Below are positions 23,337-64,000 of a stretch of DNA of 64,000 nt, in pieces. The stretch lies in assembly GCA_031310005.1 (NCBI GenBank), contig CM062379.1:7688001-7752000 (forward strand), in the 5' to 3' direction. The position numbers were made by a program, and so were the translations under genes. The notes below the pieces were generated by a model. It was not told where the DNA came from. It searched no databases and worked only from the letters and a program-made list of their open reading frames with translations. Source of the stretch: Dactylellina haptotyla (Eukaryota > Ascomycota > Orbiliomycetes > Orbiliales > Orbiliaceae). How positions within the stretch are numbered: the first letter of the stretch is position 1; each line of letters opens with the position of its first letter.

Positions 23337-24445
23337 TTAGCTCTCGCTTCCAAAGGACTCTGAATATATGGTGGACGGATCATCGCAGGAACGAGAAATA
23401 AGGTATGGCGAGGACGCCCCGTATGTAACATAGCTAAGACTAGGATCTGTAGCGTCGAAGATTTGGAACGTGTATTTGCCAGGGCCTCCACGATTAGCGT
23501 ACATCACCCTAATGGGGAAATATTGTCCGGCAGTTAAGCTAAATGTCTTTTGACCAGGTACTGGCGAACTACTAAACGTGGTAATGCCGTCGCTATTACC
23601 TCTTATCCACCCTGTTCGCGCAGTTGTGCCCGCCCAGAACAGAGCGATATCATCCGCATCGGTGACTAGTAGCGTATAATCTGCGGTCTTTGGCGCGTAG
23701 AAGTAGCCGCGATAGTTAAGTGTGTATACATCTGCTGTTGCCGGTGTAAGTCCATGCGGGTTAGCGACTTCGGCCCCAGTGCCAAGACCCATCGAATCCG
23801 CAGTCGAGTTTCCGTAAGGTTGTGGATTTGTTTTGAAGGATTCAGGTATAAAGCTCGGGTAACCATCACTAAATTCAGTGTACGGGTTATTGTAGATGGC
23901 GACTTCGAGACCAGCGTTTCCACAAGATATGTCTGGGGTGGGCGCGATTGTGGGTTCCACCCAGACCGTTTCAGTGGGCACGCGTATGTAAGTCGTTCCT
24001 GTCGCTGTTACACCAATGCATTCACATGCTGATGAATAGGATGCTGAGTTGGCGCAAGCGGCGGCATAATTTGGCACGACTCTGCCAGGGGACGGAGGAT
24101 CCGTCGGCTTAGGTGCTGTTGAAGGAGGTGTCCCAGTACGTGTAACCGTACTAAAAACGGTTAGGACTTTATCAACCGAATAGGAAAAGTTTCTTACTCT
24201 GCGCCAACGGTAATTGAAGTCCATAAAAAGGACCTGCAGTCATCGACAGTAGCTTGGGAAGGAAATGGTGAAGGTCCTGCCAGCCCTAATTTGTAGAGAT
24301 TCTGTGAGCGGTAAATACTATTATTTAGCAGATGTTAAGTGAACTTACTTGCCACGCAGTTGTCTTGAATGCACTTGCATGTACACTGGGCAACTATGCG
24401 GCCTGCGCCTGCGAGAATCAATAACAAGCTTGCAGCGAAGAGCAT
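23337..24445 (-). CDS. GLEYA/PA14-type secreted adhesin-like protein
   Basis: Three exons join in frame: 24445-24349, 24285-24198 and 24150-23337, giving 332 residues. Donors are GTAAGT (24348) and GTAAGA (24197), and both acceptors are TAG. Exon 1 gives a signal peptide followed by a CTCKCIQDNC cysteine cluster. Exon 2 gives an ATVDDC motif and exon 3 a SACECIGVT motif, a cysteine layout common upstream of fungal GLEYA domains. The GLEYA domain spans about residues 135-315: YRGYFYAPKTADYTLLVTDA, then DIALFWAGTTA, then FPIRVMYANRGGPG. There is no GPI signal. By family it binds carbohydrate or surfaces at the cell wall. The name-giving motif itself is diverged, so ligand specificity cannot be guessed. 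Confidence 0.86.
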
Positions 24446-44117: not shown

Positions 44118-45405
44118 CACATTCAATTTTTAATTAAATAGCTAATTAGTTGGCTAACTGACCGCCCAACTGATAACCAAGGCAACACATCAACCTAGCC
44201 AACCAGGACTAAATTGCAACCCTAGCACGATTAACAATTGACAAATTTATCAACACCAAAAATCTAGACCTGGTGATGCTTATTAACATTATTATCATTA
44301 CTGTTTATGCTATTAATATTATTATTAATGTCTAGTATTAAACGAACATGGTAAACACTACTAAATCTGGTAGATCTGGTAAACAACTGATTATACCACT
44401 AAGCATGATACAGTATTAAATTAACGAATACATTTATTAATAATCAATTATTACATTTAGTAGTGGCGGATATTTTGGGGTTGATTCCCTCGTACCTATT
44501 ATTAATAATATATAAACAATCTTTTAACCACTTTTACTAAATTATATATTCTTTCTTCTATAATTTACACCTACCTATTTTCTAATTTTTTAATTACAAT
44601 TCCATCATTATAATGGGATAATTAATAATTGTAATATTATTAAAATTTTATATATATAAGAATAGATTATAACCTATATATAAATATTAAAATTATGGTT
44701 ATAATATTAAAATTAATATTATTATATTTACTTTTAATTTTTTTAATTATTTTATTTATTTTATTTATTAATTTCATTAATTATATTTATTAAGCAATCC
44801 CCAATTAAATATTATAAAGTTGCATTTAGTGTTGAGTATTAAATAATTATATTTAAGGTTATTACTACCTTAATTAAAAAAATTAAGATGGTTATTATAC
44901 CCATCACCTAATTCCACACCTAAATAATTAAAGAGCTTTTAGCTGGTGATTTTTATTAAAAAAATAAAGTAAAGATTTTCTTTTACTCAGATTTCAATAT
45001 TGCTAAACTTAGATGTTATTAGTAGGATATATCCATTAAAAAAAATAAATAATCCAGATTTTAAGTAAACAATCAAAAATATGTTCTAATTATAAACTAC
45101 TATTTGATTATAATTTTAACCTAATTTAATATAAATATAATTTGTTGATCCTGATATTTTCCTTCAATCATATAGCTTAATCAATTTAAGCAACTAAAAT
45201 TAGAACCCTCACCCCCTACACTATCTATACTTTAAACAAAGGTTTATTCAATTTATATAAAGACTTTTTTAAAAAAAACAAAATTATTTACATTAATTAT
45301 TTATATAATTGCAAATAATATTTGGGTACTATTATGTATACTCTTACTTATTTTAGATTAAGTATCTCTCGCCTAGATAATAAGGTTAAACGTAGTGTTT
45401 GAACA

Positions 45406-45810
45406 GTGCCTAAACCAAAAACTAAGGCTATGGCTACCACTATTATTACTACCAAACCTATTATTATTATTATTAGTAGTAGTGATAATAACAATAACTT
45501 TAAGTCCACCAAATCCAAATTTACTATTACTATTAGTAATAGTAGTAATAATAGTAGTAGTCCTAGTAATAGCTCCAAATCCAAGTTTAGATCCGAATCT
45601 GATTTAGGAAACTCTACTAATAAATTAATCAATAATAACAACAATATTAATGAAAAAGAAAAACCGACTAAAGTGGAAGGACCCAACAGCTCCCAATTAT
45701 TAGTTACTCTAAGTAGTAATGTTAATATTATAAATACTAGTACTAATGCTGATATTAAAAAAAAAGAAGAAAAAGAAAAAAAAAAAAAAAAAACCATCCA
45801 CTTTATATAA
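45406..45810 (+). other. Low-complexity Asn/Ser/Lys-rich frame in the AT island
   Basis: A 134-residue + strand frame made of trinucleotide-type runs (ATT/AGT/AAT), ending in a poly-Lys tract from an A-run. An antisense frame of similar length exists, so openness is a by-product of simple sequence. It retains somewhat more C and G than its surroundings (ACCAAACCT, GGACCCAACAGC), hinting at a remnant of older coding DNA. I do not call it a gene. Confidence 0.3.
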
Positions 45811-48800
45811 TTATAAGTAAGAAATTTTTAAACAATTAAAATAATATTTTAATTAAAATTGGAGTGAGAAATTAAAAAACAATTACTCCAACTACTACAA
45901 AAATAAAGAAGATTTAAAACTAAACAATAAAAAGTAATTTTTTTTATATTTTTTTTTAAAAATTTTAAAAATTTTAATTTTTAATATTTGATTTAAAAAA
46001 ATTTTTAAAATATTTTTTCAATAGTTAGGTTAAAATTTTTTAAAATTTAAATATATTAAATTTATAATATTTTTTTTAATTTAAAATAAAAAAAAAAAAT
46101 AAAATTAATATCTATATTTTTAAAAAATAATAATAAATTTAGGTTAAAAGTAATATTAAAAATGAACGTAAAGATTTCAATTTTTCTAATTTTTAATTTT
46201 TAATTTTTAATTTTTTTTAATGAACATTAGTTTCCGAACACAAACAAAATGATGGTGATAAATAATATAAGTAATTTAAAATTTATCGAAGGAAAGCTTC
46301 AGTTATAGATGTAGAAATCTCAACCAAACAATAAACATAATAAAATGTAAACCAAAGGATCCATAAAAAAAAAGAAAGGAAAAAAAAAAGAAAAAAAAAA
46401 AAAATAGTAAAAATATAATAATATAATTGAAGTTAATATAAGAAAAAAATGGTAAATATAAATTAAAAAAATGAAAATAAAAAAATATAATAATATAAAT
46501 ATGGGATTATAATAAAGATTATAATAAAAATTAGCAATAAAAAAAAAAAACAATAAACAATTGTATTATAAAACAAAAAAACAACAAGGATGGTGGAAAG
46601 ATAAAAAATAGATTAAGAACTTAATATAATAAACTTTTCCAAAACAATTAAACCTTTAAACAAATATACAGTGGAAATATATTAAATGAATATTGATGGT
46701 AGGAATGATATTGATACGAATAAAATAATGAATTACATTAAAGATAAAACAACAATATTTAAATGGAAAATGAAAATCATTAAACAAAAACGAAAAACAA
46801 AAGATAGAAAATCTTACAGTAAACTTAATTTTAATTGAATAATATTAACTAAGAATAAAAAAAATTAATAATTAAAAATTAATTTAAAAGAATTGATATA
46901 ATACAATGATAGGAAGGATTACACATACAATAAAAGAACGAATAAATAAAATATAATAATAATAAAGACAATATAATAATAAAGAGTAGAGTATAATGAT
47001 ACAATGATAATAAATAGAATATGGTGATAAAACAAATTAAATTATTACTAATAATATAATATAATCGTGAGCGAATATTTTAAAAAAAGTTTTAATTAAA
47101 AAACAAAAATAATATAATAAAAAAAAGAATAATAATAACAATAATATAATAATGAAGAAAAGAATGATAACGATAATATGATGATAAATAATGGAATATA
47201 ATGGTAAAGCAAATCAAATAACAGTTACTGACAATATAATACAGCTATTGAAAAGAAACTAACAAAAGGATGATGGTTAAACAATTAAAAAACCAACAAA
47301 TATAATATAATAATTTTATACTGAGGTAGAAGTTATCTTAGAAGATGTTTTAATAAAAAGACAATTGTTAAATAATTATAAAATAATAAATATAATACAA
47401 CGATGATAATGATTGATGATTAAATTATTATCGATGATATAATATGGAGGTAAAAATTATCTTAAAAAATGTATTAATTTTGAAAAATGATTACAAATAT
47501 CAAAAATAACGATAATATGATGAAAAAAAAAATAGATTGGAAAAAAACAACAAAAATATTTAATTCGATTAAAAAAATTAAACAACCACTGATGATATAG
47601 TATAATCTTAAAAAAAATTCTAATTGGAAGACAAATTTCAATAAAAACCATAAAATATAATGTGAGATGGAATGATAATTAAATAAAATATATTAGTGTT
47701 GTTTATAATTTGAATGGAATAAAAATGGTATAAAAATTATAAAATATTAAAAAGTACAAAAGTGGATCTACAATTATTGTAATGGGATCAATTTTATAAA
47801 TAATTACTTTTTATAATTAAAATAAATATTAATATAAGAATAAAGTAAATTGAATTATGCTTATAACACTCTAAATAATAAATTAATATAAATGGGGGTT
47901 TTAATAAAATATATAATATTAATAAATTATAAAAAAATGATATTGTGGGGGGTATTAATTATCACCATAAAATATTTATAATATTGTTATAAAATTGATA
48001 TTATTATTGGTTATTTTTTTTAATCAAAAGTAAGAAAGAAAAAAATAAAAAAAAAGGGGATAGGATATGTATGGGTTATAAATTTCTAATTTAAAAATAA
48101 AAAATAAAATTTAATATATTTGTTTGTAATATATGATCTAATGTTGAATAAATTGATAAATAATATTATTGTAAATGTTATAAATTGAATATAAAATTAT
48201 TGATAATAATATTATGGTATATTGTTTTTTGGAATATCCACTATTTTTTTCAATTATTTTATTTTTTTTTAAATTTAAAAATTAAATTAATATTATTGTT
48301 TGAATTAATTACAATAAATTGTCTACTTATGTTTAATGATAAATTGTGCTAGATTGTATGTATAACCTGCAGTTATATTGTCATATTGAATAATTTAACT
48401 GATTATTTTAAACTGATAAAAGTTTATAATAAAATATTGGCTAATATTAGGCTATCATAATTAAAAAAGTGGAAAAAGAAAGAGACTAATGAATTTAAAA
48501 AAATGGTAAAACAACCCAATGGTTGATTCAAAATATTGATATTAAAAACCATAGAATACTTTCCATACAAAACCTGTGCTGTTAGATTCTTAAACGATTA
48601 TATGGTGAAAAAGTACAATAATACAAAGTATAAAATAAAATAGAAATTTGGGTGATTTAATAAAATAATTGAAACTATAGCGTTAATCAAAAAAGTTTAA
48701 ATGTAATTAATATTCAATACAAATAGCCCCAATTATTACTATTTTTTAATTAGTAGGACACCAAATTTAAAAACAAAAAAAAAAAGAAGCCAATTGATTT

Positions 48801-49909
48801 CAGGTGGATTGATTGAGGAAGCGATTTTATATAATAATATAATCTTTTTATTCACCAAATCAGTTTAGTAAAAGAAGAGGGACTAAACTAATATAATGGT
48901 GAAAAATGTTAGAAAGGAGAGGATATCGTAGATGAACTTAACAAAATAAGCTAATTATTTGAAAAGTTTATAATTGGATGGATTAACCAAAACAAATGTC
49001 TTACCAGGATGTTAGTTGACTAAGATTGACTTGCTATTAGTCTGCATAGCTATACATATTATATTAGAGTAAGTAATTAAACATTTAGATACTTTTAATA
49101 GGGATTTAAAATAATAATAAAAGAGTTCTAAGCTTGAAAAATATATATCTAGATTGATATAGAAGATAAAATCCAATTTGGATTTTGTGTACTATATTAG
49201 CTACTAGTAGAGGTTAACCATATACTATTTATAATTATATTATATAATACCAATAAAATGGTTTAGCAAATATAAAATCATTTTTAATAAAAAAATTGAA
49301 AAACGTCTGGGCGATATTAATGAGTTAATTACAAATAAGCCTTTAAAAAAAAACGGAATAGAAAATAAAAAATCAAATAAGGAATTTATTGATTAAATTT
49401 TTAAATTTAATATTACCATTTTGAAATAAAAGTTTACTAATAGTGGTTGGTACAATTCCACAATTCATTTCACCACAATTTTAAATATTGATAAAAGTAG
49501 CCTATAATTTAAGAAGCCCAAGGATTATATAATTATATTGGTGGGTTTGATATACTACTTGCGGTTAATATTTTTGCGAGACACTATTGATAATCTAAAA
49601 TCAAACCTATTACCAACAATAGAGAAAAACGAATAAGTTATTCTAACAATTAAATATTATTAAAGGTACAGATGGAAGTAGTTGATAAATGGGAGTTATA
49701 TGTTGATAAACTTGATACTAAATAACCTAGCCTATGGTTTAAAGAAAGTGATGTTTATATTTAATTAGGTGAACCTATTGTAGGTAGATTTAAAAATAAA
49801 GATTGAATTTAAATTTAAAGAACAATTAATAACAATTAATGATTTAAAAAAAATAATGTACATATTAATAAAAAAAATAAATAAAATCCTATAGTAGGAT
49901 CTACTATTT

Positions 49910-52900
49910 ACTGAGTTGAAAGATTAAAAACCTACTATAGAGTTGGATTGTACTAATAATAATGTAACCCTTAAAATTAAGAATACTAGTAGCATCTTTT
50001 TTAACCTTAACAATCTTGCCGAGTTGGTAAAGGGCATACAGTTTATATAAAACCAATTGTTTATGAATAAAAATGCTAAATTGTATATGCTAAGTGATTT
50101 TAAATGGTTGATTTTTAAGGATTTAGATTTTAAGTGGTATAGTAGATCAGTCAATAATTTCCTGGACAAACTATTCATATTAGTCTATATTACAGGGGGT
50201 TTACTAGTTAAAAGCACCAAAATTAGCTATATTTACTACTAAAATGGGCTTTCAGTAAATAGGAATATCTTTATTATTAGTGGTAAAATTATATTTATTT
50301 TATAATATTATAAAAAAATGATATTAATTAATTAAATAAAGATGGTATTTAAAATACTATCAAAAGAGGTAGGGAAACTGATAACAATATATTTATAATA
50401 TATTAAACCATTTACCAATACCTTGAATAGGATATATTGTAAAAATAAATTAAAGTTAAATTACCTCTAAAAAAATAATAAGGGCAAGTACTAATTTAAT
50501 TATTGTATATATAAAGTGCTCGAGAAAGTAATTAAAAAAAACTTGGGTATTAAATTAGGTATACAATTATATTAGTACATTGTAATAATGTTTAACAAGG
50601 ACATCATACACTACAATAAGTTTACAAATGAATAATTTAAAAATTTTAATAACAAGGATCTTATACTGGATGAGGAAGATAAAATCAAAGGTAAGAACAC
50701 AGATTAAATGATAGCAACACTGCAAACCAATTATAGTACACACAGTCAAACGAACTATTATGGTATAACAACAAATCTAGTATTTAAGCTAACATTTAAT
50801 TTACTAAAACTATTCAGCAAAATAAATAAAAAATGGCATTAATTCTTAAAATTCAAATTAAAAGAGGAGCAAAATGTTAAAAAATATGAGTAATAAAAAT
50901 CCTTAATCAATATTAATTATACAATAATAAAAGGTAAAATTACCCCAAAACTAGAGTAATTATATATTTTTAATAATTAAAAGAAAAGTGCTACCTAAAA
51001 AAAAATGTTAATATAAAAATAATTAAAAATAAAAATTGTATAAATTAATATTATAAAAAGATAATAATTAACGATAAAATTTAAAATAGTAAAATTTAAA
51101 ATGACAATCAACATCTACAGCGTGATTACCATTATAAAGTATTGAATAAGTGCTAATTTTAATAATGAACCGGATTGGAAAACAATAGCACACAATACCC
51201 TTAGGAAAAAATTCAGTTACTAAACCTTTAAATCAATAGAATAGTTTTGAGGTATAGTAGTAATCCTAGAACAATAGCCATTAACAATTACAATCCTACC
51301 TATGGGTGGGGGTAAAAGCTTGCTCTAAATATTATTGGTGGTACAGAATTGGGAGGGTACGATGGTTATAATAATACTGTATATCAGCCTGGTTAGGGAT
51401 CTTATCAGATAGTATAAAGAAATTGGATTAAAAATGGTTCTTTGGCAATTTAGCGAGTAGTTAATAACCAAATGGGTAATAATTGTGGTAATAAAAAGTG
51501 CAGTAGACTCGATATAAAAGGAAATGAACCAATTCTAGACATTCCTCTACTACTTCTTAATATTAAAAATTAACAACTTGCTTAATTGTATAATTATTGA
51601 TGAGTACCACATGGCGGTGACTAAATAAATGTTTTGAAAAGCAATATACAACCTGCACCACGTTGTGGTACTAAAAATACTTACACTATTCACAATAACA
51701 ATATTGCTTTTATATATAAAACAGGCGTTTAAATAAATGCTAAAGCTAACTAAGAGGTTGGTTCAATATATTAAAGTTAAAAACATTTGTATAAATGTAA
51801 GTGTAAATGTAACAAACTACAGAAATAAACAGACTATCACAATGGCGTGTAAGTTGGCCAAAGAACGTGCAATGAAGCTTCGGCCAGGACAAAAAATCAT
51901 AATATACACGCAGATGAAAAGGGAAACCATTGTATTAGTTGGACCAAAAATATTGAATTGTAAAAACTACCATGGTAAAATAACAGACGCAAAAAGGAAC
52001 TCAGTGTTAGAAAAATAAAAACGAGCAAAACAAGTCTTCTTAACAGCAACAACAATTTTCAATTACGGTGTAGACCACCCAGGCATAATAAAAACAATAT
52101 ACATTGGGATACCATACAACCTAATTAATTACATGCAGGAGAGTGGTAGGGTGGGACAGCATAAAATAATAGTGTGGTTGATTGTAATAACAAAAGAGTG
52201 AAAGTTAAAACCAGCTGAAAACTTAAAAAAGATGGCGGACGCGAAATTCTCAATGTACAACAGGTAATACCTGGGTAGAATAATGTAAACGAAAAACTAC
52301 CAAATAACGTTTATTTCAAAATTTTTGGATGGGTGCAATGGGATAGACTGCACGGAGTTAAAGGTTAACTTATACAATAACTACTCAATCGCGGAGGCAA
52401 GATGGTAGGGGGATTACACCAAAAAAAAATGGCGGCCAACAGAAATTTGCGAGAGCAGTACTTACGATATTAATACCAATGCCCCAATTACATAGGGATA
52501 GAGAATAACGCCACCATTGGGGTCGGATTAGATAAGATTCATACTTAACTGGTTGATTAAAAATTGCATGGTATGTAGGCTGAGAAACAAGGAGGGGGAT
52601 AGCTAACAACAATATAAGATGATGTATTGTAACAAATTATAAAAATAGAATTTTAACACAATTGTAAAACTAAACTGATAGATTAAGTGGCCAAGCAACT
52701 AGGGCTACTGTTAAACATGTGGGTTATTGGCAGATATCTGCAATAAGACAAATTTAAAGAAGGGGGAAAAAAGGGATTGCGATTTTAAATAAATACTATT
52801 GGCGATAGTTTTCTACAATTAAATACTGAACACTAGGTTTAAAGTGCAATTATGAGAGTACATAGAGATTGTTTGGTGGAAAAAATTCGATTACCCAAGT

Positions 52901-52999
52901 TAACTAGCGAAGAAGATAAGCAAACGGTTATACAGGTTACAAATAATGAATGTATTTAGCATAATAAATATATTCAGCCAAAAATTTGTAATGGTGTAA
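49910..52999 (+). pseudogene. Telomere-linked RecQ-type helicase (TLH-like) relic, RIP-degraded
   Basis: One + strand frame, interrupted only by stop codons, can be followed from about 49910 to a final stop at 52997-52999. N-terminal half: VNNFLDKLFILVYITGG, NRNIFI and the acidic LILDEEDKIKG, which match the conserved block before the helicase in fungal telomere-linked helicases. Helicase core: ILPMGGGKSLL (Walker A, Lys codon 51314-51316), IIIDEYHMAV (DEAH-like box, 51599-51610), RPGQKIIIYTQ, VFLTATTIFNYGVDHPGI and YMQESGRVGQH (motif VI, near 52136). After it come EFLDG-like SKFLDGCNG, cysteine-rich segments and WWKKFDYPS near the end. Stops replace expected Gln (for example in DLIR-stop-YKEIG). 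Upstream of 49910, related sequence seems to continue in another frame to about 49660. Living TLH genes sit beside telomeres and are repeated; this copy cannot encode protein. Confidence 0.85.
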
Positions 53000-54084
53000 T
53001 AACGAAAAGAGGGAAGGAGGGGGGGAAAAAACGTTATCATTTTTTATATTGTTAATATTTTTGGTAAAAATTCTATTGCATATTTATTTTGAACGTTTTA
53101 ATATTTTATTTGGGATAAAAATTTTATTATATTTTTTTTATGATCAAGGCGTTTTCAATGGAGGTTAATATACAGTGGAATTTATTTTTTCAGACAAAAA
53201 GGTTAAAAAAATAATGGAAAAATATGATGGGAGTAGGAAATGAGAGTTAGAAATTTTTATTTTATTTTTTAAAAATTTACAATAATATTTTTTTTTTTTC
53301 TTTTTTAATTGTTACGAACATAAGGACAAAGTCGTATTACAATAAAAAAAGCGAAAATTCAATTGAAAGAATAATGATAAAAAACAAATCCGACCGCGCA
53401 CATAATATGATGGAGAGTAAAAGCGATTAAAAAAACAATTTGATTGAGAGAAGAATTGTAAGAGATAAATTACAAACAAAAAATAAAAGAATAGGAATAA
53501 AAAAGAAAATAAAATAAAAATATAAAATATAAGATATAATTGTAAATAAAAAAATAAAAATAAGAACATCCTAAGATGTAAAAAAAATACATTACAACCG
53601 AAAAAAATGGAAGATAGAAAATGATTATAAAAAGTATACAATAAAAAAAAAAATAAAAAACCCGACAAAAGCAAAGGGGAAAGCTGTTCAAAAAAAAAAA
53701 GAAAAAAAAATTAAGATAAAAATTATAAAATAGAAATATTAAACACAAAAACGAAATAATAGAATTGAATAATTAATGCAATAGGAAAGAGTTAAGATTA
53801 AATATAAAACATGGTAGTGAATAAAAACAAAAAACAAAATGAAAAAATAAAGGAATGGACAAAGGTTACAGTAAAAAAATAAAATTTTTTTTTACATTTA
53901 AAAAAAAAAATCTTTTTTTTTTTTCCAAAAAAAAATATAAAATCAATTGGAAAAAAAATAAAAACGAAGGGATAATATTTAAACAAAAACGAAAAATATA
54001 TTAAAATAATAATGAAAATAAAAAAGTAATATAAAAAATAAAAATAACACCATAATATCGTTACGTTTTTAAAGTAAATAAAAA

Positions 54085-54228
54085 AAAAAAAAAAAAAAAA
54101 AATAAATTTGATTGTACAAAATTGACAACAAACAAAACAAACAAAAACGATATTTATGTAGACTTGTTATGGTAAAAAAAAAAGATAACACAAACCAAAA
54201 TAAAAACACGATCGAACCATCGATTTCG

Positions 54229-54263
<35 letters not shown>

Positions 54264-54334
54264 AAAAAAAAAGGAAAAAAAAAAAAAGGAAAAAAAAAAA
54301 AAGGAAAAGGAAAAGGAAAAAAAAAAAAAAAAAA
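54085..54334. repeat. Homopolymer and GGA-spaced poly-A tract
   Basis: Very long A-runs (54085-54102 and 54230-54260), then A-runs spaced by GG or GGA up to 54334. This simple sequence sits between the helicase relic and the telomere-like array. It produces a long antisense poly-Phe frame and a + strand poly-Lys frame, neither of which is a gene. Confidence 0.7.
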
Positions 54335-54510
54335 GCGAAGCGAGACTACTTGGCATAGATTTTTTAAAAATAGCGAATATAGCGGAATTTAAAATTAAAT
54401 ATTAAAAAAAAAAAAAAGTTAGCGTAGTAGGACGTTAGAGGGGTAGTTTAAAAGAAAAAAGAATAAGGTGAGCGCAGCGTAACGTTGGGTGATAGATGTG
54501 AAAAAGAGAA

Positions 54511-54642
54511 GGTTAGGGTTAGGTAGGTTAGAAAAGAAAAAGTGCGAGCGAAGCGAGCATGTGGGATAGTTGGTTGGTAGATGTTAGGTTAGGTTAGGGT
54601 TAGGGTTAGGGTTAGGTTAGGGTTGGGTTAGGGTTGAGGTTA
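54511..54642 (+). repeat. Interstitial telomere repeat array (degenerate TTAGGG)
   Basis: A short run GGTTAGGGTTAGGTAGGTTA at 54511-54530 is followed by a longer array at 54583-54642 made of TTAGGG with TTAGG and TTGGG variants. TTAGGG is the telomere repeat of most filamentous ascomycetes. The G-rich strand reads left to right, which is the direction toward a chromosome end on the right. No CCCTAA half follows, so it is not a head-to-head telomere fusion. It lies about 1.6 kb after the end of the TLH relic. Confidence 0.9.
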
Positions 54643-57600
54643 GCAGTCAAGTTAGGACAGGAGGTTCCAGGACAGGTTGCGGTTGGAGCGACACGACGAC
54701 AACACGACGTTATGGTTGGGTTGGGGACAAACAATCAGGGCTGATGACGAAAGCAAGCAGATCTGTTGGCGATGCGACGAGATTATCTCCGTCGATAAGA
54801 TCCGATTAGATTAGATCACGGCATTAGCTCGAACGATCGGTGCAGGGACCATCGGTCGCGTGTTGCCGCCCACTCGGCCATGCTAATCCCTCAGCCATCG
54901 TATTTATTCACAAGATTCGCAGAGACATTCATATTCTCTCACCGTTTGATATCACAGCCGACCTGTCTGGTCGTATCTCGGTGCGTTCATATCCTCGCGC
55001 TGTGATTGGCCAACCCCACTCACGGATTTACGATTGTCCGGCAAATTAGAGCTCACTGGCCAAAAAAAAAGGCGAATCGAATCATGATAGGTGGCATCGA
55101 TTACCAAACTCAAACTCCTCACGCGCGTGGGATGTGCATATGTTGTTCAACCGAGAGCTCCACGGTCGGGTATGTCGTAGCCTCTTTCGTTAGCCTACTT
55201 TTTTTTCATTTTCGTTTTTCTACATTTCCTTCCGCTGTTTCTCTTTTTTTCATATTTTTCATTCTTTTTTAGGTTGACAGCCAACATGTTATTAATGTAA
55301 TGCGGTCTTACCTATCAGAATTATGCATTTCCAGGTACACACCACCGCCAACAAAAGGCAAATAATACAAAAGGCAGATCAGTTGACATTGGCCCCGGCC
55401 CTAAGGAATATTGGTGGCGGGTGGAGGAAATAAGATGGAAAGCCAGAAAGCAAAAAACAGAGTTTTTAGTAGGACCACCACCACCCCAGGTTATCTCTTG
55501 CTTGTCAAAACGCCAGTGTTTCGCCTTTTGCCTGCTTCCAGTTGTTCGATGGATTGTCCAGGTCGAATAGGAAGAGGAATATGGGGAGATAGCACAGAAA
55601 GAAACGAAGGGACCCAGACCAGGGAAATGCGTGGAGCGAAGGGCTGTGTGTAATTTTAGCACATCCGAAGATGAGGAGCACCACCGGACAAGACAAGTGA
55701 AAAAACGAGGGACCTGAGTGTTTTTGCTTAGTTACGCCAGCCAACCAGTAAGCCCAGACCCGAGTGGGTCCTTCCCTTCCCCATGCCCATCATCAAGGGA
55801 GAAAAAGCAAAGTCCCGAAGAGCAGGCTGGAAAAGAAGGTCAAGAAAGAAGGTCACGGACAACCCTCCGCCAAAGAAGCAAAAAGGCGAGCAAGACACCA
55901 AACAAGGGAACAAGGAGGAAAAAGCAAAAGTGGCATTGAGATTTGTGGGTCCCTTTAGGCCTGGCAAAAGCAAGCAAGCGCCTTGTTTCATGATTTGACC
56001 TCAAGCGAAAGAGAAAAAGAGCCGGTGCGTAAGGACCTTCTTGGCTTTTGCTTTTTCCGGGGCGCAACCACTCTTCGGTGCAGATGCGGTGGAGGTGTTG
56101 CGAGCCGGGATGGGTGGACAAGATGGGGAGTTGTTACTAAGTAAATATGGGGGCAGCAGAGCGATGTGGCATGGCATGGGGAAAGATCGGAAACCGAACC
56201 AGACAACAGCAAGGAAACAGAAAAGGGCAGATGTCAGCCAGCCCAGCCAGAGGCAAGTCAAGTGCAAGGTGCGTACCCGCCCGCACCACCTACCAGTATT
56301 GCAGACTTACCCCATTGTAGACCCCATTTTTGTTTGCCTCGCCAACCGCCATGCAAAAGTGGCTGCTACTCCGACTAACCCACTCGCCCATCGGATATTT
56401 TTTTCACTTTTAAATAGATAAAACTGTCCACGGTGGAGCGTAGGATTAAGCAAAACCGTTCAGCTGGAAGGAACAAGGCGAATGGAACAGAATGGAGGGG
56501 TGTGGGTCGGTTGCCCGTTAGAACGCCATCATGGTATCTACGCATGTACGATGCCAATCCTGTAGGTAGAAAGGCTGCTGATGCCGAACGAGCAAAGCGA
56601 AACATCCGGACGAAACACACAATACGGCCGGCATTTGTCAGGCGAAGCAGCACACGGGTTTGTCTTCGTCCGGCCCGGGTCTCGTAGAAACCGGAAATAA
56701 AATATGAGAAAAAGGAAAGAAAAGCAAGAGGGAGATGGAAACAGGTGCACCTCGCACCGACTGCGATGATGTGTTGTTGGTCGTCAGGAATAGCATCTCG
56801 TATCCTTTCTCATTTACCAGCCCCACATCCACACACACGTATCGTGCAATCTTCCTATCAGCGTCGGATGGGTTCCCAGCCCCGGGTAGAACGCATCAGG
56901 ATCCCGGAACACGCGATGTGCAACGAACGGTTGGCTGGATGGCGAAAGACAGTGCTATTCCGTAAATACATTTAAATGCATTTGATTACCCACTTTTCTG
57001 GCAAGATCTATAAAGAGGGCTAGCACTGTCTCAAACATGGTAAACGTACGCATACCATGTGCGTTGGTGATGGTGATGTACGGTCACTTCCATGTGGGCA
57101 CCTGAGGTTTGCCGCTGTGGCAGCGCCGGGCGGGCAAATCTCCTGGTTTAGCGTGAACATGTTTCGAGTTTTACCGCACAGATCCTGACAGCAGTAGCGA
57201 TCAAATTGTTGGACGAGAAAGATTCATTTCAGATCCATCGTCGGTTGTACCAGGGGAGTGTTCAGACCGCGAGGGCAAAATTGACCAAATTGCAGCCCGC
57301 ACACGTAACTAAGAACGGCTCTTCGCATGCGGCTTGCAACAGAACCCTCACCTCGCCTCCCCCACCGGACAGCCTGGGGGGAGAAAAAGCTTGATATCCT
57401 TGAAATATACTTGCAAGCAACAGATATTACATGGGCAAATTTCGAATCATTATAGTTGTGGGGTTCATGTAGGATGTTGTATTACGTCTATAACTTTTTT
57501 GTTCATCCCCTTTCACACAGGGTATATCGTGCAACATACGTGACGAATTAACTGTAATCAACCAGTGTGGGTTGGGTTAGATGATCTCAGTCCTTTTGCG

Positions 57601-60600
57601 GACTGGGCTAAGATTTCGGACGGGCCTTGCGGTAGGCGTGAGGATTCGCACCGCAAAAGAAAAGCTCGGAATCACGAGAAAAAACGGAACCGATCTCATT
57701 CACGGAAAAGCGATGGGCTGAGGGAACATGAACGATCCAAGCCCACACTTGGCAAGCAAAAGCCGAGTTTCATGAAGCACCCGTAAAAGTATGAAAATTG
57801 CCAAAGCATAAAAGGGAAAAAAGAAAATACCAATACCGAGAGAACACACCCATATTAAAGGGTAAAAAGAAGAAAAACGCAGAAAGCTCGCTAGAATCAG
57901 GAATAACCGGAGTAAGGGCATACGCCTTTTCCTGGGCATACACGAAAAGTAAATTCGCACAGGAACTGTCCCGTACTGGAAATGGTGTATGATTTCCCCA
58001 AGAAGCTTAACACGTTTTAAGACTTCTCTTCGGTGGCCCAAACGAGGAATGAGCAAGACGCCAGAAGGAGAAGAATAATAACATTCCGATCCCAGATCCC
58101 CTTACCGCAGCGTGGTGTTTTCCCTCTAGGTTCCTCATCAAGAGATCGATTAGCTGGAAGGGCAGAGCGGAGCGTACATCACTTATATGACTTCGACGGT
58201 AGTCTCATTTTTTCTCATTCTGTTTGATAAGAAGGGCTTGCATACAATAAAATGCAGATAAACACAGGGGAAAATGAGGCAAACATGCCTTAATAAGCGG
58301 GATAAAGGGTTTATGACATACCTACCCATATGTAATGTTCACTATACTAGCGTGCATACCTGCCTGCGGGAAAGGAAGGGAACGAATTCGAAAGAAGGAT
58401 GTAACGCCGTCGAAAATTTGCCTTTTCGGTCGCTTTCACCTGCTGGATTTCGGATCTTGCCTTCATGTCGATTAAAATTTGCTTTTCACATTCTTGAGGG
58501 GTAGATTATGGGATGCGGATGGAGGGGGTCGGGAAGGGCTTGGCACATAAGCTCTTTTGTCTTTTAACCATGATCTCTTTTTTTATTTCTTTCTTTTCTG
58601 GGGAATTTTTTTTTTTGAAACGTGAGACATTGCAGGAATTGGGATGTCCGCGAAACCCAGCCGGGCGAAAAATGAAGATGAAATATGACGGGGCCGATTA
58701 GAAATCGCAGAAGGGGGGCATTGATGATGACGTTAAAATGCCTCGGAGGGTGTGTAGTGGAGGTGGAGGGACGATACCTGCATGATCGGGTACGAGGTCG
58801 TCGGTACCTATCGACAGCTTCGGATCTTATAATAGCTTACGGAGGTTAGTCCTAAGAGATATGATGACACCTCACAACACCGATAGCATTTAATCTGTCC
58901 CCACGATGACCGACCGACTTTCTGGATGATCCATTTGTCATCGGTGCATGCATGCGGGAGAAAAAAGAACCGGCAAGGGTTAAAAATAAGAGCGTTGCAG
59001 CAGCAAGAAGCGATGGAGGGAACGAATGCACTGGATAAGAAGGAAGGGGCAAAAAAAAGAATACCTCGTAGAAGGGAACAATATGTTCTTTTTTCGCGTA
59101 GCTGGGGTGGGTAGCCACTACTAACATGATCTGGGATACATAGGCTTTACCCACCCGGCAGCGGACACGAGAAAAGGGAAGAAGCAATGTGTTAGCGGCC
59201 CTTTCCTTCCCAATGTTGGCTGGCAACCTTGAACGACCCATTTTATTTCGTTCGCCGTGTTTGCTTCTTCGTTGTGTTGCTTTAACCCTGAGACGTTTGG
59301 GCGTTGCTTTTTTGGGCGACGTTCCCAAAGTTGGTAAAGTAAAGTTGCGGGAGCACTCCCCCTCGCCATCTGGCGGTGTGTGTGAGAGAGTGTGGGATGG
59401 ATGGGTCATCAGGAGGCTTAAAAATGGAGATAAAAGGAAGTGGCTCTGATCAAACGGATTTGTGGAAGGGAAGGAGAATTCGCCGCACCAAACACTACGC
59501 GGTAGCCCTAACATGTTTGGTGGAGTCGAACTCTTGCCCCGTCCGGTAAACTATCCTTCCTGGTTAACTGATGCGATGAGCGAAGGGAAAAATGAATATC
59601 AATCTGGCGTTCCTGTGAGATGGCGGCCGTCAACGTGTGGAGGCATAGATGGGTCTTCTTATTACGCCGAAAGGTCAGGCGTGTGGTTTTCGTTTTTTTT
59701 CGTCTGTATTCAGCGCGAAACGATCGAGACGCTGGCTACCTAAAATTCTTGTATTTTCTTCTCAGAGGGCTGAAAAACAGGAGCAGGAAAAAGAATGCGA
59801 GCGAGGTGAAAAAGCACTGTTTCTATGTGGACCTTTGTGGACGTGTGTGCTGTGGATGGATATCTCACGTAGCGGTCAGGTAAAGTAATATGTATTATTA
59901 CCACAACCACCGCAAGCCCCTCTGTCGAGACAATTGAGGAAGGAGGACCCCCAAAAACCGATCGGTTGAGCGCGAAAGAACGACCGAAGTTCCGCCTGTT
60001 CTGGAGACGCAAGGAAAAATAAAACACAGGCAAGAAGCAAACATGGTAGCGTGAGGGACAAGAAAAAAAGGAAGAAGTTGTGCCCCTTCTGTCACTTAAT
60101 GACACGATCAATTGGTTGGCGAGGAACCGAACGCAGGAAAAAAGCAAAGATTAGGAACAGAGGGAGTCCGGTCCATTACGTCCAGCACGCAGTTTAATCT
60201 GAGTGGGTCCGCCATCGTTAGCCTGGTCGGTGCTGTGGAGCATTCCATCATGCCCTCTTTGGCTTGGGGTGCGAGGGAGCCGATGTTCGAACAAGGGCAA
60301 TGGCAGAATAAGAAAAGAAACACCGAAAAACAAAACACGCCCGCAATATAATCCAAGCTTGCGAGATGTGCGTAATAGCGAGGTTTTTTTTTTTTTTTTG
60401 TCTCCCAGCAGCAGCACACCCCCAAACAATTAATTTTTTGCATTCTAAGCCAGCATGCAGGAAAGATCCTTAGCGTCGAAGACTATTCTGTCTCTCCTCT
60501 GCCTCTCTCTGTTTTTGTTTTTTTCCTTCTTTTATCCCCAGGCCAGGCGAATGGATGAACCATCCGGGAGGAGCCATACCAGCCAAGCCCCATGTTCTGG

Positions 60601-61500
60601 GAATGGTGTCGATGCGTTTTGACTGTGCCTTCTCCGACTGGAAACATGGCGATCGGGATATCCCTCACCTGCACACATGTTAACCTTTTGCCGGTAATGT
60701 GATAAGTAAATAACTGGGCGTGATAAGGGACGACAATAATAACAATAGTAAGGAAGACAATAACAATAACATTAATTATAATTAGGTTTGAGAGTTGTTC
60801 GTTGTTGGGCGCGTGAGTCGGAGGACATTCGCGGGCTGCGGTGGATAGATAGATAGGTAGATAGCCCGGATTGTGAAATATTAATACGCAGAAATGAAGG
60901 AGCAAGAAACAAGTAGAAGGATGACAGAGAGAGGAGAGAGAGCCCCTGTCGGCTGCCAAGGAGGTCCTCGCCCAGGCAATCGTTACACCCTGAAGTCAAA
61001 CCAACATACGGAACATCACAATCCTCCATGATCATAATAATAAATGAGAAGAAGCAAAAGGGACGCCCACACCCTTCTTCGGGCCTAGTCGAGGAAAAAT
61101 AGGCTCGGGAGGTTTCTTTTTTCTGACGCCGCGTGCCCGAGGTTGCTTTTTCGGCACTACTCTTAAATAAAGAGCTTCCCGCCAGAGGAGAAGAAAATAA
61201 CAGACTGACATCCACCTGGGAAAAAGGAAAGAAGCCTGTGGGCTTCTTCGGAAAAAGAAAGGAACCACAGGAAAAAGGAAAAACCGATCTGTGGGTCGGT
61301 CGTCTGGGGTCAAATAAACTACTGCAGGCTGTCTTTCTGGCTGTCCTGGCTTGTCCTGGCTGTCTCCTGCTCTGTTACTCGCCCTCCGCCAGCCAGCTTT
61401 TCTTCTTTGACTTTCCTGCTGGCTCCTACCCAAGTTTTATAGTGAAATCTGACTCGCTGATAATGTGCGGTCGTGGGTCCCGCCGATACCTGAACGTGGA
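54643..61500. other. Long gene-free stretch, normal base composition
   Basis: About 6.9 kb returns abruptly to balanced composition, yet I cannot support a gene in it. Many frames of 60-220 residues open on both strands over the same bases (for example 55321-56653 and 58852-60147), with no domain motif, no signal peptide and no coherent splice chain. The purine-rich + strand composition (GAAGG, AAAGGAA runs) explains the open antisense frames. It may hold distal regulatory DNA and non-coding transcripts for the downstream corepressor gene. Confidence 0.45.
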
Positions 61501-63040
61501 ATAAGAAAACACGGGTTAAGACCAGTTCGTTATAATAAACGCTAGGCTGTGATTATTACCCGTCCAAAGTGCTTTTTCCTTCCCTCTGCTGGGCCTGCGG
61601 TCTGTGGGTTTTTGGCTTTGGCTTGTCTTGTCGTCCGTCTGGCGAGTCGGGATCTACCTGCTAACGGTCCCTCTTTTCTCTCCGCCGGGTCCTCTCTTCC
61701 TTTCTCTTCTTCCTCTCTCTCTCTCTCTTCCATTCCTCTCTCCTTCTTCTCCTTCTCCCTTCTCATCATCACCATCATCAACACCATCACCGCCATCACC
61801 ACTCCCACCGCCTCGCTTCTCTGGCACGTAGAAGCAAGAGCCTTCCTCCCTCCTTGACAGGACATCATCTCGCGGGCCTCGTGTTTCCATTCCTCCATCT
61901 GCTCTTTTTTGCCTTTTTTGCGTCTGTCCGTCCCGCCTGTGTCCTGTTTTATCTGCCCGCCGTCTTCGAAGTTAAAAAAAAGTTTCGATTGATAAGAGTT
62001 ACTTGTATGAGCGTGTATTGTCCTTTGTGAACCCAATCATACCCACCCCGACTACCTACCTTGGCTACATCGTCGTCATCATCATCACCATTTACGATCT
62101 GGTGTTTGGCGTATCGCTCCCTCAGCCCTATCTATATCTGATACTATCTATAATCCCTTCTTGGTCTCGCTCCTCTCCCTTCTCGAGCAAACCATCCGAC
62201 ACCGTTTCCAAGAATAACCACACCCACCAACCCAACCCGATCCAACCGCAGAACATCTCACCCTCAACTCGCCCTATTCTTTTTTATTTAATTTTTATTT
62301 TATTGTTCTGTTTTCTCTTTCTATATCTTCTGTCTTCCTCTTCTCTTCTTTACCTATTCCTTCCCGCCTATCATTTACGTTTACATCATAGTGTGCCATT
62401 GGTGCCTCGGGTCCTTGCGCTGGTGTTTGTTTGAGCCGACTCGCTTCCCTGCCCACTCAATTCCTTACCGCCAACCCACCTGCCATCCAAAAACCTCGCC
62501 TTTTCCCTCTTCCTTGTTTCTCCTGGCCCGTTCTCTTTCGCATCGCCCCCTCTCGCGAAATCTCCGTTGTTTATTCCTCTCGAAGCATTTTCGCATTGCG
62601 AGGCCATAAATCCACTTCCACCACCGCAATCCATCTCGTCACGTTTCCTTCCGTTGGTACATACGTCGCCTTGCCCGCATCTCGATAATCCCTTCCCCGT
62701 CTGCATCATCACACTTCTCTGGGGGAGATCAACTTCACACTCGATCCCCGTCACGTTTTCGTCTGTGCGAGCCCACCCGACAGATCTTCCCGGGGATCCG
62801 ATTCGACCGCAATCCTGTACCAATAACCCACCAACCTCATCTTCAAGTCCGAAGGCTGTCGTAGTTCGCGTCATTAAAAGAGACCAAGTCCAAAGGCTAG
62901 CGTGTCGTCTGCGGAAACGAACCATCCACAGCAGCCTCTCCGACTCGCCTCATTACCAATAACCTTCCCCACTACCCCCTTCAACCACCACACTGCAACG
63001 CTCACCTCTTGTCACGCGCGTGAATCGCGCCGCCGTCGAG
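61501..63040 (+). promoter_or_regulatory. Pyrimidine-rich promoter and long 5' leader of SSN6
   Basis: The 1.5 kb before the SSN6 start is strongly C/T-rich on the + strand (for example 61670-61830 and 62140-62700), with CTCTCTCTCT and TCATCACCATCATCA runs. Pyrimidine-rich tracts are typical of promoters and leaders of strongly regulated fungal genes. Several short upstream ATG frames exist (for example from 62003 and 62902), so upstream-ORF control is possible. The exact transcription start cannot be read from sequence. Confidence 0.5.
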
Positions 63041-64000
63041 ATGTCTGGTCCTCCGCAAACGTCCCCTCACCACCCGCACAATGCTCCTCCCGGCCCGCTT
63101 CCTAATGGCCACGGTCCCCCAATGGGGCCCGGCGGAAAGCCCAGCGCGTCTCATCAACTCAGCCAACTTAACGAGGCTGTCTGGTTGAAAATTGGTAAGT
63201 CCCAGACGCAACATAATTCTCTCAATTGGCGCTACTCGAAAGTCTTGCCACATTATCCATCTAAACAGTAATTGACTGAAATTTTGTTGTAGGTTCAATC
63301 GCCGAGATGATGGGCAACATGGATGGTGCTATGGACGCCTACGAGGCTGCTCTAAGGCAAAACACCTACTCGATACCCGCCATGGAGAATATCTCGCACA
63401 TTTTGCGCACACGGGAACAGTTCCCCAAGGCAGTCGAATATCTCCAAGCTATCTTGAACATTGACGCCAACAACGGCGACGTCTGGGGCTCTCTCGGTAT
63501 GTATCACGCCGTTATGCACTCCTGAAATACGCACCGCTAATGAAATCAACAGGACACTGCTATCTCATGATGGATGACCTGCAAAAGGCGTACCAGGCCT
63601 ACCAACAAGCCCTCTACCACCTCAGGGATCCTAAGGAACCCAAGTTGTGGTACGGAATCGGTATCCTATATGATCGCTATGGATCTCTAGAGCACGCCGA
63701 GGAGGCCTTCTCGCAAGTTATGAGAATGGATCCTCACTTTGAGAAGGCGAATGAGATCTATTTCCGTCTCGGTATAATCTATAAGCAGCAGCAAAAATTC
63801 CAACAGAGTTTGGACTGCTTCAAATTTATCGTGCAAGACCCACCACGCCCACTCACTGAGGAGGACATTTGGTTCCAGATTGGTCATGTTCACGAACAAC
63901 AGAAAGACGTAAGTAGAGCATGCAATAAAAAATTATAGATGAAAATACTAAACTAAACCCTTTCACAGTTCGAAAATGCGAAGAAGGCATACCTCAGAGT
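63041..64000 (+). CDS. SSN6: Ssn6/Cyc8 general transcriptional corepressor (TPR protein), 5' part
   Basis: Exons 63041-63194, 63293-63496, 63553-63908 and 63969 onward (runs off the window) join in frame with donors GTAAGT, GTATGT and GTAAGT. The start MSGPPQTSPHHPHNAPPG opens a Pro/His-rich leader, followed by LNEAVWLKIGSIAEMMGNMD and tandem TPR repeats: AMDAYEAALRQN, FPKAVEYLQAILNI, GHCYLMMDDLQKAYQAYQQAL, LWYGIGILYDRYGSLEHAEE and IYFRLGIIYKQQQKFQQSLD. These match the N-terminal TPR array of yeast Cyc8/Ssn6. By family it complexes with Tup1 and is recruited by DNA-binding repressors in the nucleus. Introns 1 and 2 interrupt Gly codons at TPR borders. The rest of the TPRs and the disordered tail lie beyond 64000. 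Confidence 0.95.

What the first reader, a model, noticed from the sequence alone, without database searches (positions are those of the whole stretch)
49910..52999. RIP-degraded telomere-linked RecQ helicase preserved in a single stop-riddled frame
Seen: GGGKS, DEYH, a VDHP motif and QESGRVGQ all lie in the same + strand frame over about 3.1 kb of AT-saturated DNA, with TAA/TAG but almost no indels. Known: TLH helicases are repeated genes beside telomeres in many fungi, and RIP turns repeated DNA AT-rich with Gln-to-stop changes. Inference: this is a dead subtelomeric TLH copy. The length and single frame mean it could be de-RIPed by alignment to relatives.
Basis: partly seen in the sequence, partly recalled or inferred. 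Interest (0 to 1): 0.8.

Follow-up and report, generated by a model that had tools for sequence, protein, structure and literature searches.

The report
Dead RIP-mutated telomere-linked RecQ helicase
A fungal chromosome end carries a dead copy of a helicase gene that sits beside telomeres, destroyed like its sister copies by mutation aimed at repeated DNA; this is a known kind of relic, and the DNA that the assembly draws beyond it is very probably not really there.

Summary
All four motifs lie in one + frame, and the stop-masked frame matches RecQ helicases (Pfam Helicase_C 1.2e-12; best PDB match 7e-9). Seven further stop-riddled copies were found near contig ends, each pointing to the end. 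This copy and the one on C8R differ by 946 transitions, 0 transversions and 0 gaps in 3,381 bases, which is strong evidence for RIP-like mutation. Dinucleotide indices are weak and CpA is barely preferred. Transversions against an older copy favour third codon positions, so the gene once worked; it runs about 48.9-53.0 kb in a repeated AT-rich block of about 10 kb. No intact close copy was found; two distant open relatives were.

New here: a telomere tract follows at 54.51-54.64 kb. From 54.73 kb on, the contig is a near-perfect copy of internal contig-6 DNA, and 9 of 10 telomere-less contig tips tested have such a second copy. I read this as chimeric-read overhang: the chromosome really ends at about 54.6 kb.

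RIP-degraded subtelomeric RecQ repeats are published (PMC3017866). New member of a known kind.

The parts
44300..54250 (+). AT-rich subtelomeric repeat block (about 10 kb) that holds the helicase relic; left edge approximate
48900..52990 (+). dead telomere-linked RecQ helicase gene, both limits approximate
   Evidence: third-codon-position excess of transversions against C6R (51/22/91 by phase from 48901 to about 51150, summed; p 2.9e-10); against C8L and C1L phase 3 is highest in 12 of 13 bins from 48901 to 52800
49850..50899 (+). N-terminal module shared with the open homologue on C9R; function unknown
   Evidence: phmmer of the masked frame against the C9R N-terminal frame 4.9e-11 in a search of three targets; alignment A1; no Pfam match, one PDB chance-level match at E 1.2, no PDB match by profile, PHROGs at best 0.085, unknown function
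51305..52159 (+). helicase core: GGGKS (51305-51319), DEYH (51599-51610), VDHP (52070-52081), QESGRVGQ (52136-52159)
53003..54490 (+). A-rich tail between the gene and the telomere, part of the repeat
   Evidence: 80% identical at C10R and 83% at C8R as far as these go
54510..54643 (+). degenerate TTAGG(G) telomere tract: the likely true end of this chromosome
   Evidence: read; all 34 and 74 matches to two telomere patterns in the assembly lie within 56 kb of a contig tip (reversed-pattern controls 3 and 1 matches)
54725..64000 (+). overhang: near-perfect copy of C6:1188046-1197331, very probably an assembly artefact; seems to continue to the contig end
   Evidence: the contig tip matches C6:1228680-1228852

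Best explanation
A telomere-linked RecQ-like helicase gene of a filamentous ascomycete (inferred), inside a subtelomeric repeat of about 10 kb, spread among chromosome ends in one orientation (towards the telomere) while it still worked. A repeat-recognising C-to-T process, RIP or very like it, then mutated the duplicated copies on both strands, making stop codons and AT-rich DNA without indels. Three copies (C4R, C6R, C2R) are cut off inside the gene and followed at once by telomere repeats. The copy in this window is dead, and the true chromosome end is the telomere tract about 1.5 kb downstream. Shown: homology, copies, position, orientation, transition-only divergence among the closest copies, past selection on codons, truncation at telomere tracts. 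Inferred: spread by recombination or break-induced copying between ends, premeiotic timing, and survival of two diverged single-copy relatives because they are too unlike for RIP.
For: RecQ match of the masked frame. Eight stop-riddled copies including this one, at eight of 20 nuclear contig ends, all directed to the end. Transitions/transversions among the four closest copies: 946/0, 939/0, 759/2, 898/0, 705/2, 727/2. Of 62 in-frame stops, 61 have an aligned sister among C8R, C10R and C4R and 33 have a non-stop codon in one of them; the 42 such sister codons differ by transitions only, one change for 23, two for 17, three for 2. Transversions against the older C6R copy fall 51/22/91 on codon phases 1/2/3 and the four gaps there are 15 bases each (p 2.9e-10). 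Telomere tracts follow the truncated copies. DNA methyltransferase domain (PF00145) at three places, not assigned to RID.
Against: RIP indices are weak: TpA/ApT 1.13, substrate 0.96, composite 0.17; of the thresholds in PMC7882544 (above 1.15, at most 0.75, above 0) only the composite passes, and the block upstream (-0.03) and the tail (-0.04) fail it. Target context is nearly flat. No intact close copy was found, so direction is inferred. 28 of the 61 comparable stops are stops in every aligned sister and say nothing. C6R differs from each of the four by 104 transversions, and C8L, C1L and C2R by many more: these are older lineages whose divergence is not by RIP alone. No comparison with a named TLH protein was possible.
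Confidence: 0.93

Rival explanations
1. Slow decay: an old pseudogene drifting to AT in heterochromatin by deamination of methylated cytosine, without RIP.
For: Flat dinucleotide context and weak RIP indices are what an unspecific C-to-T process would give.
Against: 946 differences with no transversion and no gap in 3,381 bases do not fit slow neutral decay, which also makes transversions and indels; two relatives near ends that are not close repeats keep long open frames.
Confidence: 0.05
2. The relic lies 43 kb inside a real chromosome end, because a piece of contig 6 was really copied onto this end (break-induced replication or translocation).
For: The contig continues for 40.9 kb past the tract, and its first 9.3 kb and its tip match C6 with the same spacing. 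Two ends (C5L, C8L) share one donor on C2, which independent chimeras would not predict.
Against: The copied tip carries no telomere. Of 10 telomere-less tips tested, 9 have a 99-100% second copy elsewhere, at eight different places. Past the first 382 bp of the join there is no difference in the 8,105 bases compared, so RIP has not touched it, although the subtelomeric repeats examined here are heavily mutated.
Confidence: 0.05
3. A core DNA-repair RecQ (Sgs1/BLM type) or a transposon-borne helicase rather than a telomere-linked one.
For: The helicase core alone matches RecQ generally.
Against: The one non-telomeric match to P0001 is weak (C1:5759024, 24.8 bits), and all stop-riddled copies found are near contig ends.
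Confidence: 0.03

Closest known systems
Sub-telomeric repeat X26 of Stagonospora nodorum, a RIP-degraded telomere-associated RecQ helicase (PMC3017866, passages read)
   Same: Subtelomeric repeat, RecQ helicase content, RIP-degraded, recognised once RIP is allowed for
   Different: There 26 putatively functional RecQ gene models remained; here no intact close copy was found, only two distant open relatives. The copies here show a flat C-to-T context.
RecQ family tightly linked to the telomeres of Mycosphaerella graminicola (PMC4522978, passages read)
   Same: Helicase of about 3.5 kb, low GC, 13 copies of which 6 truncated
   Different: That paper reports a large open frame (coding sequence 3,480 bp, GC 34.7%); here every copy found is stop-riddled
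tlh genes and tlh-containing regions of Fusarium oxysporum (PMC12857005, passages read)
   Same: tlh frames of about 3.5 kb at chromosome ends, full and truncated copies
   Different: Those are listed as ORFs and often stand beside FoTeR retrotransposons, which I did not look for here
Subtelomeric RecQ helicases of Agaricus bisporus var. burnettii (PMC7473861, passages read)
   Same: Subtelomeric, partly truncated, in two sequence groups
   Different: That paper found no domain other than the helicase core; here a further conserved N-terminal region is shared with an open homologue, though it too matches no known family

Membership tests
Telomere-linked RecQ helicase (TLH) | RecQ-type helicase core | tested here: met
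Telomere-linked RecQ helicase (TLH) | several copies beside different chromosome ends | tested here: met
   eight stop-riddled copies at eight of 20 nuclear contig ends, one direction (C11 taken as mitochondrial by eye)
Telomere-linked RecQ helicase (TLH) | next to the telomere repeat itself | tested here: met
   tract about 1.5 kb past this copy; directly after the truncated copies on C4R, C6R and C2R; C1L 7 kb from a terminal tract. Not shown for C8L, C8R and C10R.
Telomere-linked RecQ helicase (TLH) | closer to named TLH proteins than to Sgs1/BLM | not testable with these tools
   no eukaryotic protein collection on hand
Telomere-linked RecQ helicase (TLH) | working gene | tested here: not met
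   62 in-frame stops: a dead member; past selection shown by codon phase
RIP-mutated repeat | divergence among copies by transitions only, without indels | tested here: met
   4,974 transitions and 6 transversions over the six pairs of the four closest copies; not so for C6R (104 transversions against each) and the more distant copies
RIP-mutated repeat | stop codons by C-to-T / G-to-A changes | tested here: met
   33 of 62 stops have a non-stop sister codon, 20 of them one transition away and 13 two, none by transversion; direction inferred
RIP-mutated repeat | dinucleotide indices above usual thresholds | tested here: not met
   1.13 / 0.96 / 0.17; only the composite passes (thresholds from a table note in PMC7882544)
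RIP-mutated repeat | CpA preference | tested here: not met
   fractions changed: CpA 0.53-0.75, CpG 0.61-0.74, CpT 0.48-0.62, CpC 0.37-0.66 over four copies and both strands
RIP-mutated repeat | RID-type methyltransferase in the genome | tested here: inconclusive
   PF00145 at three places (C7, C5, C4), not assigned to RID or DIM-2

The most novel reading that the evidence does not exclude
The helicase family is a two-module subtelomeric mobile element: its N-terminal module, conserved between the relics and the open homologue on C9R, is a tyrosine-recombinase-like domain (by eye and from recall of the motif: RGTEL, then KNYR, then GH...TSY in the C9R frame) joined to a RecQ motor, so that the element could insert at or exchange between telomeres; and RIP in this lineage hits such repeats with almost no dinucleotide preference. 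No profile search supports the recombinase part, and in the relics the middle motif is not visibly kept.
Probability: 0.1. Interest if true: 0.6.

Novelty: new member of a known kind. Interest (0 to 1): 0.3.

Why it matters
It shows a subtelomeric helicase family of which every copy found has been killed by repeat-targeted mutation, leaving AT-rich blocks that still mark chromosome ends. It also gives a practical warning: nine contig tips in this assembly are very probably overhang, so genes annotated beyond the telomere tracts (here the TPR gene at 63.5 kb) would be duplicates that do not exist, and real subtelomeres would be misread as interstitial. The flat C-to-T context, if real and not just saturation, bears on how RIP chooses its targets.

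Tried and rejected
Stop counts per frame as evidence of coding: rejected, an antisense frame has fewer stops. A tyrosine-recombinase identity for the N-terminal module: tried by Pfam, PDB (single sequence and profile) and PHROGs without support; kept only as the novel case. A methyltransferase search could not tell RID from DIM-2. Rfam found nothing in the window at gathering scores. The organism was not identified: a filamentous ascomycete, perhaps an Orbiliomycete, is a guess from genome size, GC and a GLEYA protein, untested. Papers were seen as passages only (one search gave only a reference-list entry).

Full report
Where it lies. The finding lies in an AT-rich island from about 44.3 to 54.5 kb. 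That the organism is a filamentous ascomycete is inferred.

The observation. The four motifs lie in one + frame. With X at the stops, the frame 49610-53002 (P0001) matches Pfam Helicase_C at 1.2e-12 and no other Pfam family at E up to 10, RecQ chains in the PDB at 7e-9, and NCBIfam RecQ models at 2e-13 and 3.1e-12, far below their curated cut-offs. Stop counts are not evidence by themselves: 62 in the frame, 143 and 112 in the other + frames, but 53 in one antisense frame.

Other copies. A search of the own genome with P0001 gave 13 matches. One is the window. Eight carry stops; two of these I take as pieces of one copy on C2R, which makes seven further copies: C8R, C10R and C4R (60%), C6R (56%), C2R (43% and 31%), C8L (38%), C1L (36%). 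All lie near contig ends and point to the end. The other four have no stops: C9R (two stretches, 24% and 21%), C2R:4451709 (19%) and C1:5759024 (26%, not at an end). A search with the C9R helicase frame gave seven matches: itself, C2R at 35%, three of the relics and two weak helicases elsewhere. The C9R gene reads as frames of at least 728 and 655 codons separated by what looks by eye like an intron.

RIP. Among C1R, C8R, C10R and C4R the pairwise transitions/transversions are 946/0, 939/0, 759/2, 898/0, 705/2 and 727/2 over 2,694-3,381 bases. Gaps are none for C1R-C8R, one of 69 bases for C10R, and two at the truncated end of C4R. C6R differs from each by 104 transversions and is an older lineage. 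Of 62 stops, one has no aligned sister and 33 have a non-stop codon in some sister; all 42 such sister codons differ by transitions only, and at 20 of the 33 sites a sister is one transition away, at 13 two. Against a textbook RIP: TpA/ApT, substrate and composite indices are 1.13, 0.96 and 0.17 in the relic, 1.00, 1.03 and -0.03 in the block upstream and 0.93, 0.97 and -0.04 in the tail, so most thresholds quoted in PMC7882544 are not reached; and the changed fraction of cytosines hardly depends on the next base. Saturation could flatten both, and those fractions are conditional on another copy keeping the C. I still judge RIP much the best reading, because slow decay would leave transversions and indels.

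It was a gene. Transversions, which RIP does not make, fall 51/22/91 on codon phases 1/2/3 against C6R in the bins from 48901 to about 51150 (my sum; the start was chosen after seeing the bins; p 2.9e-10), and the four gaps there are 15 bases each. Against C8L and C1L, which are related to each other, phase 3 is highest in 12 of 13 bins of 300 bases from 48901 to 52800, by little in two of them; against C2R in 11 of 11 up to 52200. A slight phase-3 lean also shows at 48301-48750 against C8L and C1L, so the 5' limit is soft. Gaps against these three are not mostly multiples of three (7 of 17, 9 of 19, 8 of 21), as may be expected of old dead copies and rough alignments. The gene therefore spans about 48.9-53.0 kb.

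The repeat. The tail recurs at C8R and C10R at 80-83%; C4R stops near 52.29 kb. C4R is cut at residue 901 of P0001, C6R at 520 and C2R at 736, and each is followed by a telomere tract within about 250 bases. I infer that chromosome ends were healed inside the gene. Beyond the C2R tract lies DNA of 3-18% GC; the tip is 14 kb further on.

The true end. A degenerate TTAGG(G) tract lies at about 54.51-54.64 kb. From 54725 the window is a copy of C6:1188046-1197331. Over 54727-63214 there are 9 differing columns, all in the first 382 bp, and none in the other 8,105 bases. The C1 tip matches C6:1228680-1228852, so spacing is kept within 11 bases over 40.8 kb; the stretch between was not compared. 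Eight of 20 nuclear contig tips end in telomere repeats (C1L, C5R, C6L, C6R, C7L, C7R, C9L, C9R). Of the 12 others I tested 10, by pieces of 163-202 bases from the tips; C2R and C8R, which end in AT-rich DNA, were not tested. Nine of the ten have a second copy at 99-100% elsewhere (C1R, C2L, C3L, C3R, C4L, C4R, C5L, C8L, C10R) and C10L matched only itself. An eleventh piece, just past the C4R telomere tract, matched C5 at 98%, collinear with the C4R tip. Four of the nine (C1R, C3L, C4R, C5L) have a telomere tract 36-56 kb inside, in end orientation; for the other five the two patterns found none. C5L and C8L share one donor on C2, and the first 5 kb of C8L match it at 99%; independent chimeras would not predict this, and it is unexplained. 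Single chimeric long reads causing misassembly in a fungal genome are described in PMC7500977 (passages). I put 0.95 on overhang.

Compared with what is known. RIP-degraded subtelomeric RecQ repeats are published for S. nodorum (PMC3017866); telomere-linked RecQ families for M. graminicola (PMC4522978), F. oxysporum (PMC12857005) and A. bisporus (PMC7473861); a RecQ pseudogene serves as a hint of telomere linkage in Epichloe (PMC3585121). RIP is reported across Pezizomycotina (PMC7882544). This is a new member of a known kind. A little unusual: every copy found is dead (the search scores only its best candidates, and several contig ends lack their telomere, so an intact copy may be missing), the context is flat, and an N-terminal region is shared with an open relative.

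Verdict.

Noticed in passing
window 54725-64000 and on to the contig end (L009, L032, L033, L021): Near-perfect copy of C6:1188046 onwards beyond the telomere tract; the TPR-repeat frame at 63465 therefore exists twice in the assembly, very probably once in the fungus.
   Followed up: yes
tips of C2L, C3L, C3R, C4L, C4R, C5L, C8L, C10R: Same kind of 99-100% duplicated tip at eight other contig ends; C5L and C8L share one donor on C2, unexplained.
   Followed up: partly
L037 4180-4310, L026 4890-5000, L044 2050-2190: Three truncated helicase copies pass into the telomere through T-rich units (runs of T followed by AGG) before regular TTAGG(G) repeats.
   Followed up: no
C11 (249,811 bases; L031): Probably the mitochondrial genome: by eye a cox1-like stretch and LAGLIDADG-like intron frames; large for a fungus.
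   Followed up: no
C1 4.27-4.33, C2 2.39, C3 2.20-2.33, C4 1.61-1.68, C5 1.66-1.69, C6 1.82, C7 1.29-1.31, C8 1.85 and 2.61-2.63, C9 1.10, C10 1.52-1.59 Mb: Clusters of low-complexity AT-rich matches, about one per nuclear contig, possibly centromeres (listing capped).
   Followed up: no
window 23337-24236 (-): GLEYA-domain protein (6.1e-29), perhaps an adhesin.
   Followed up: no
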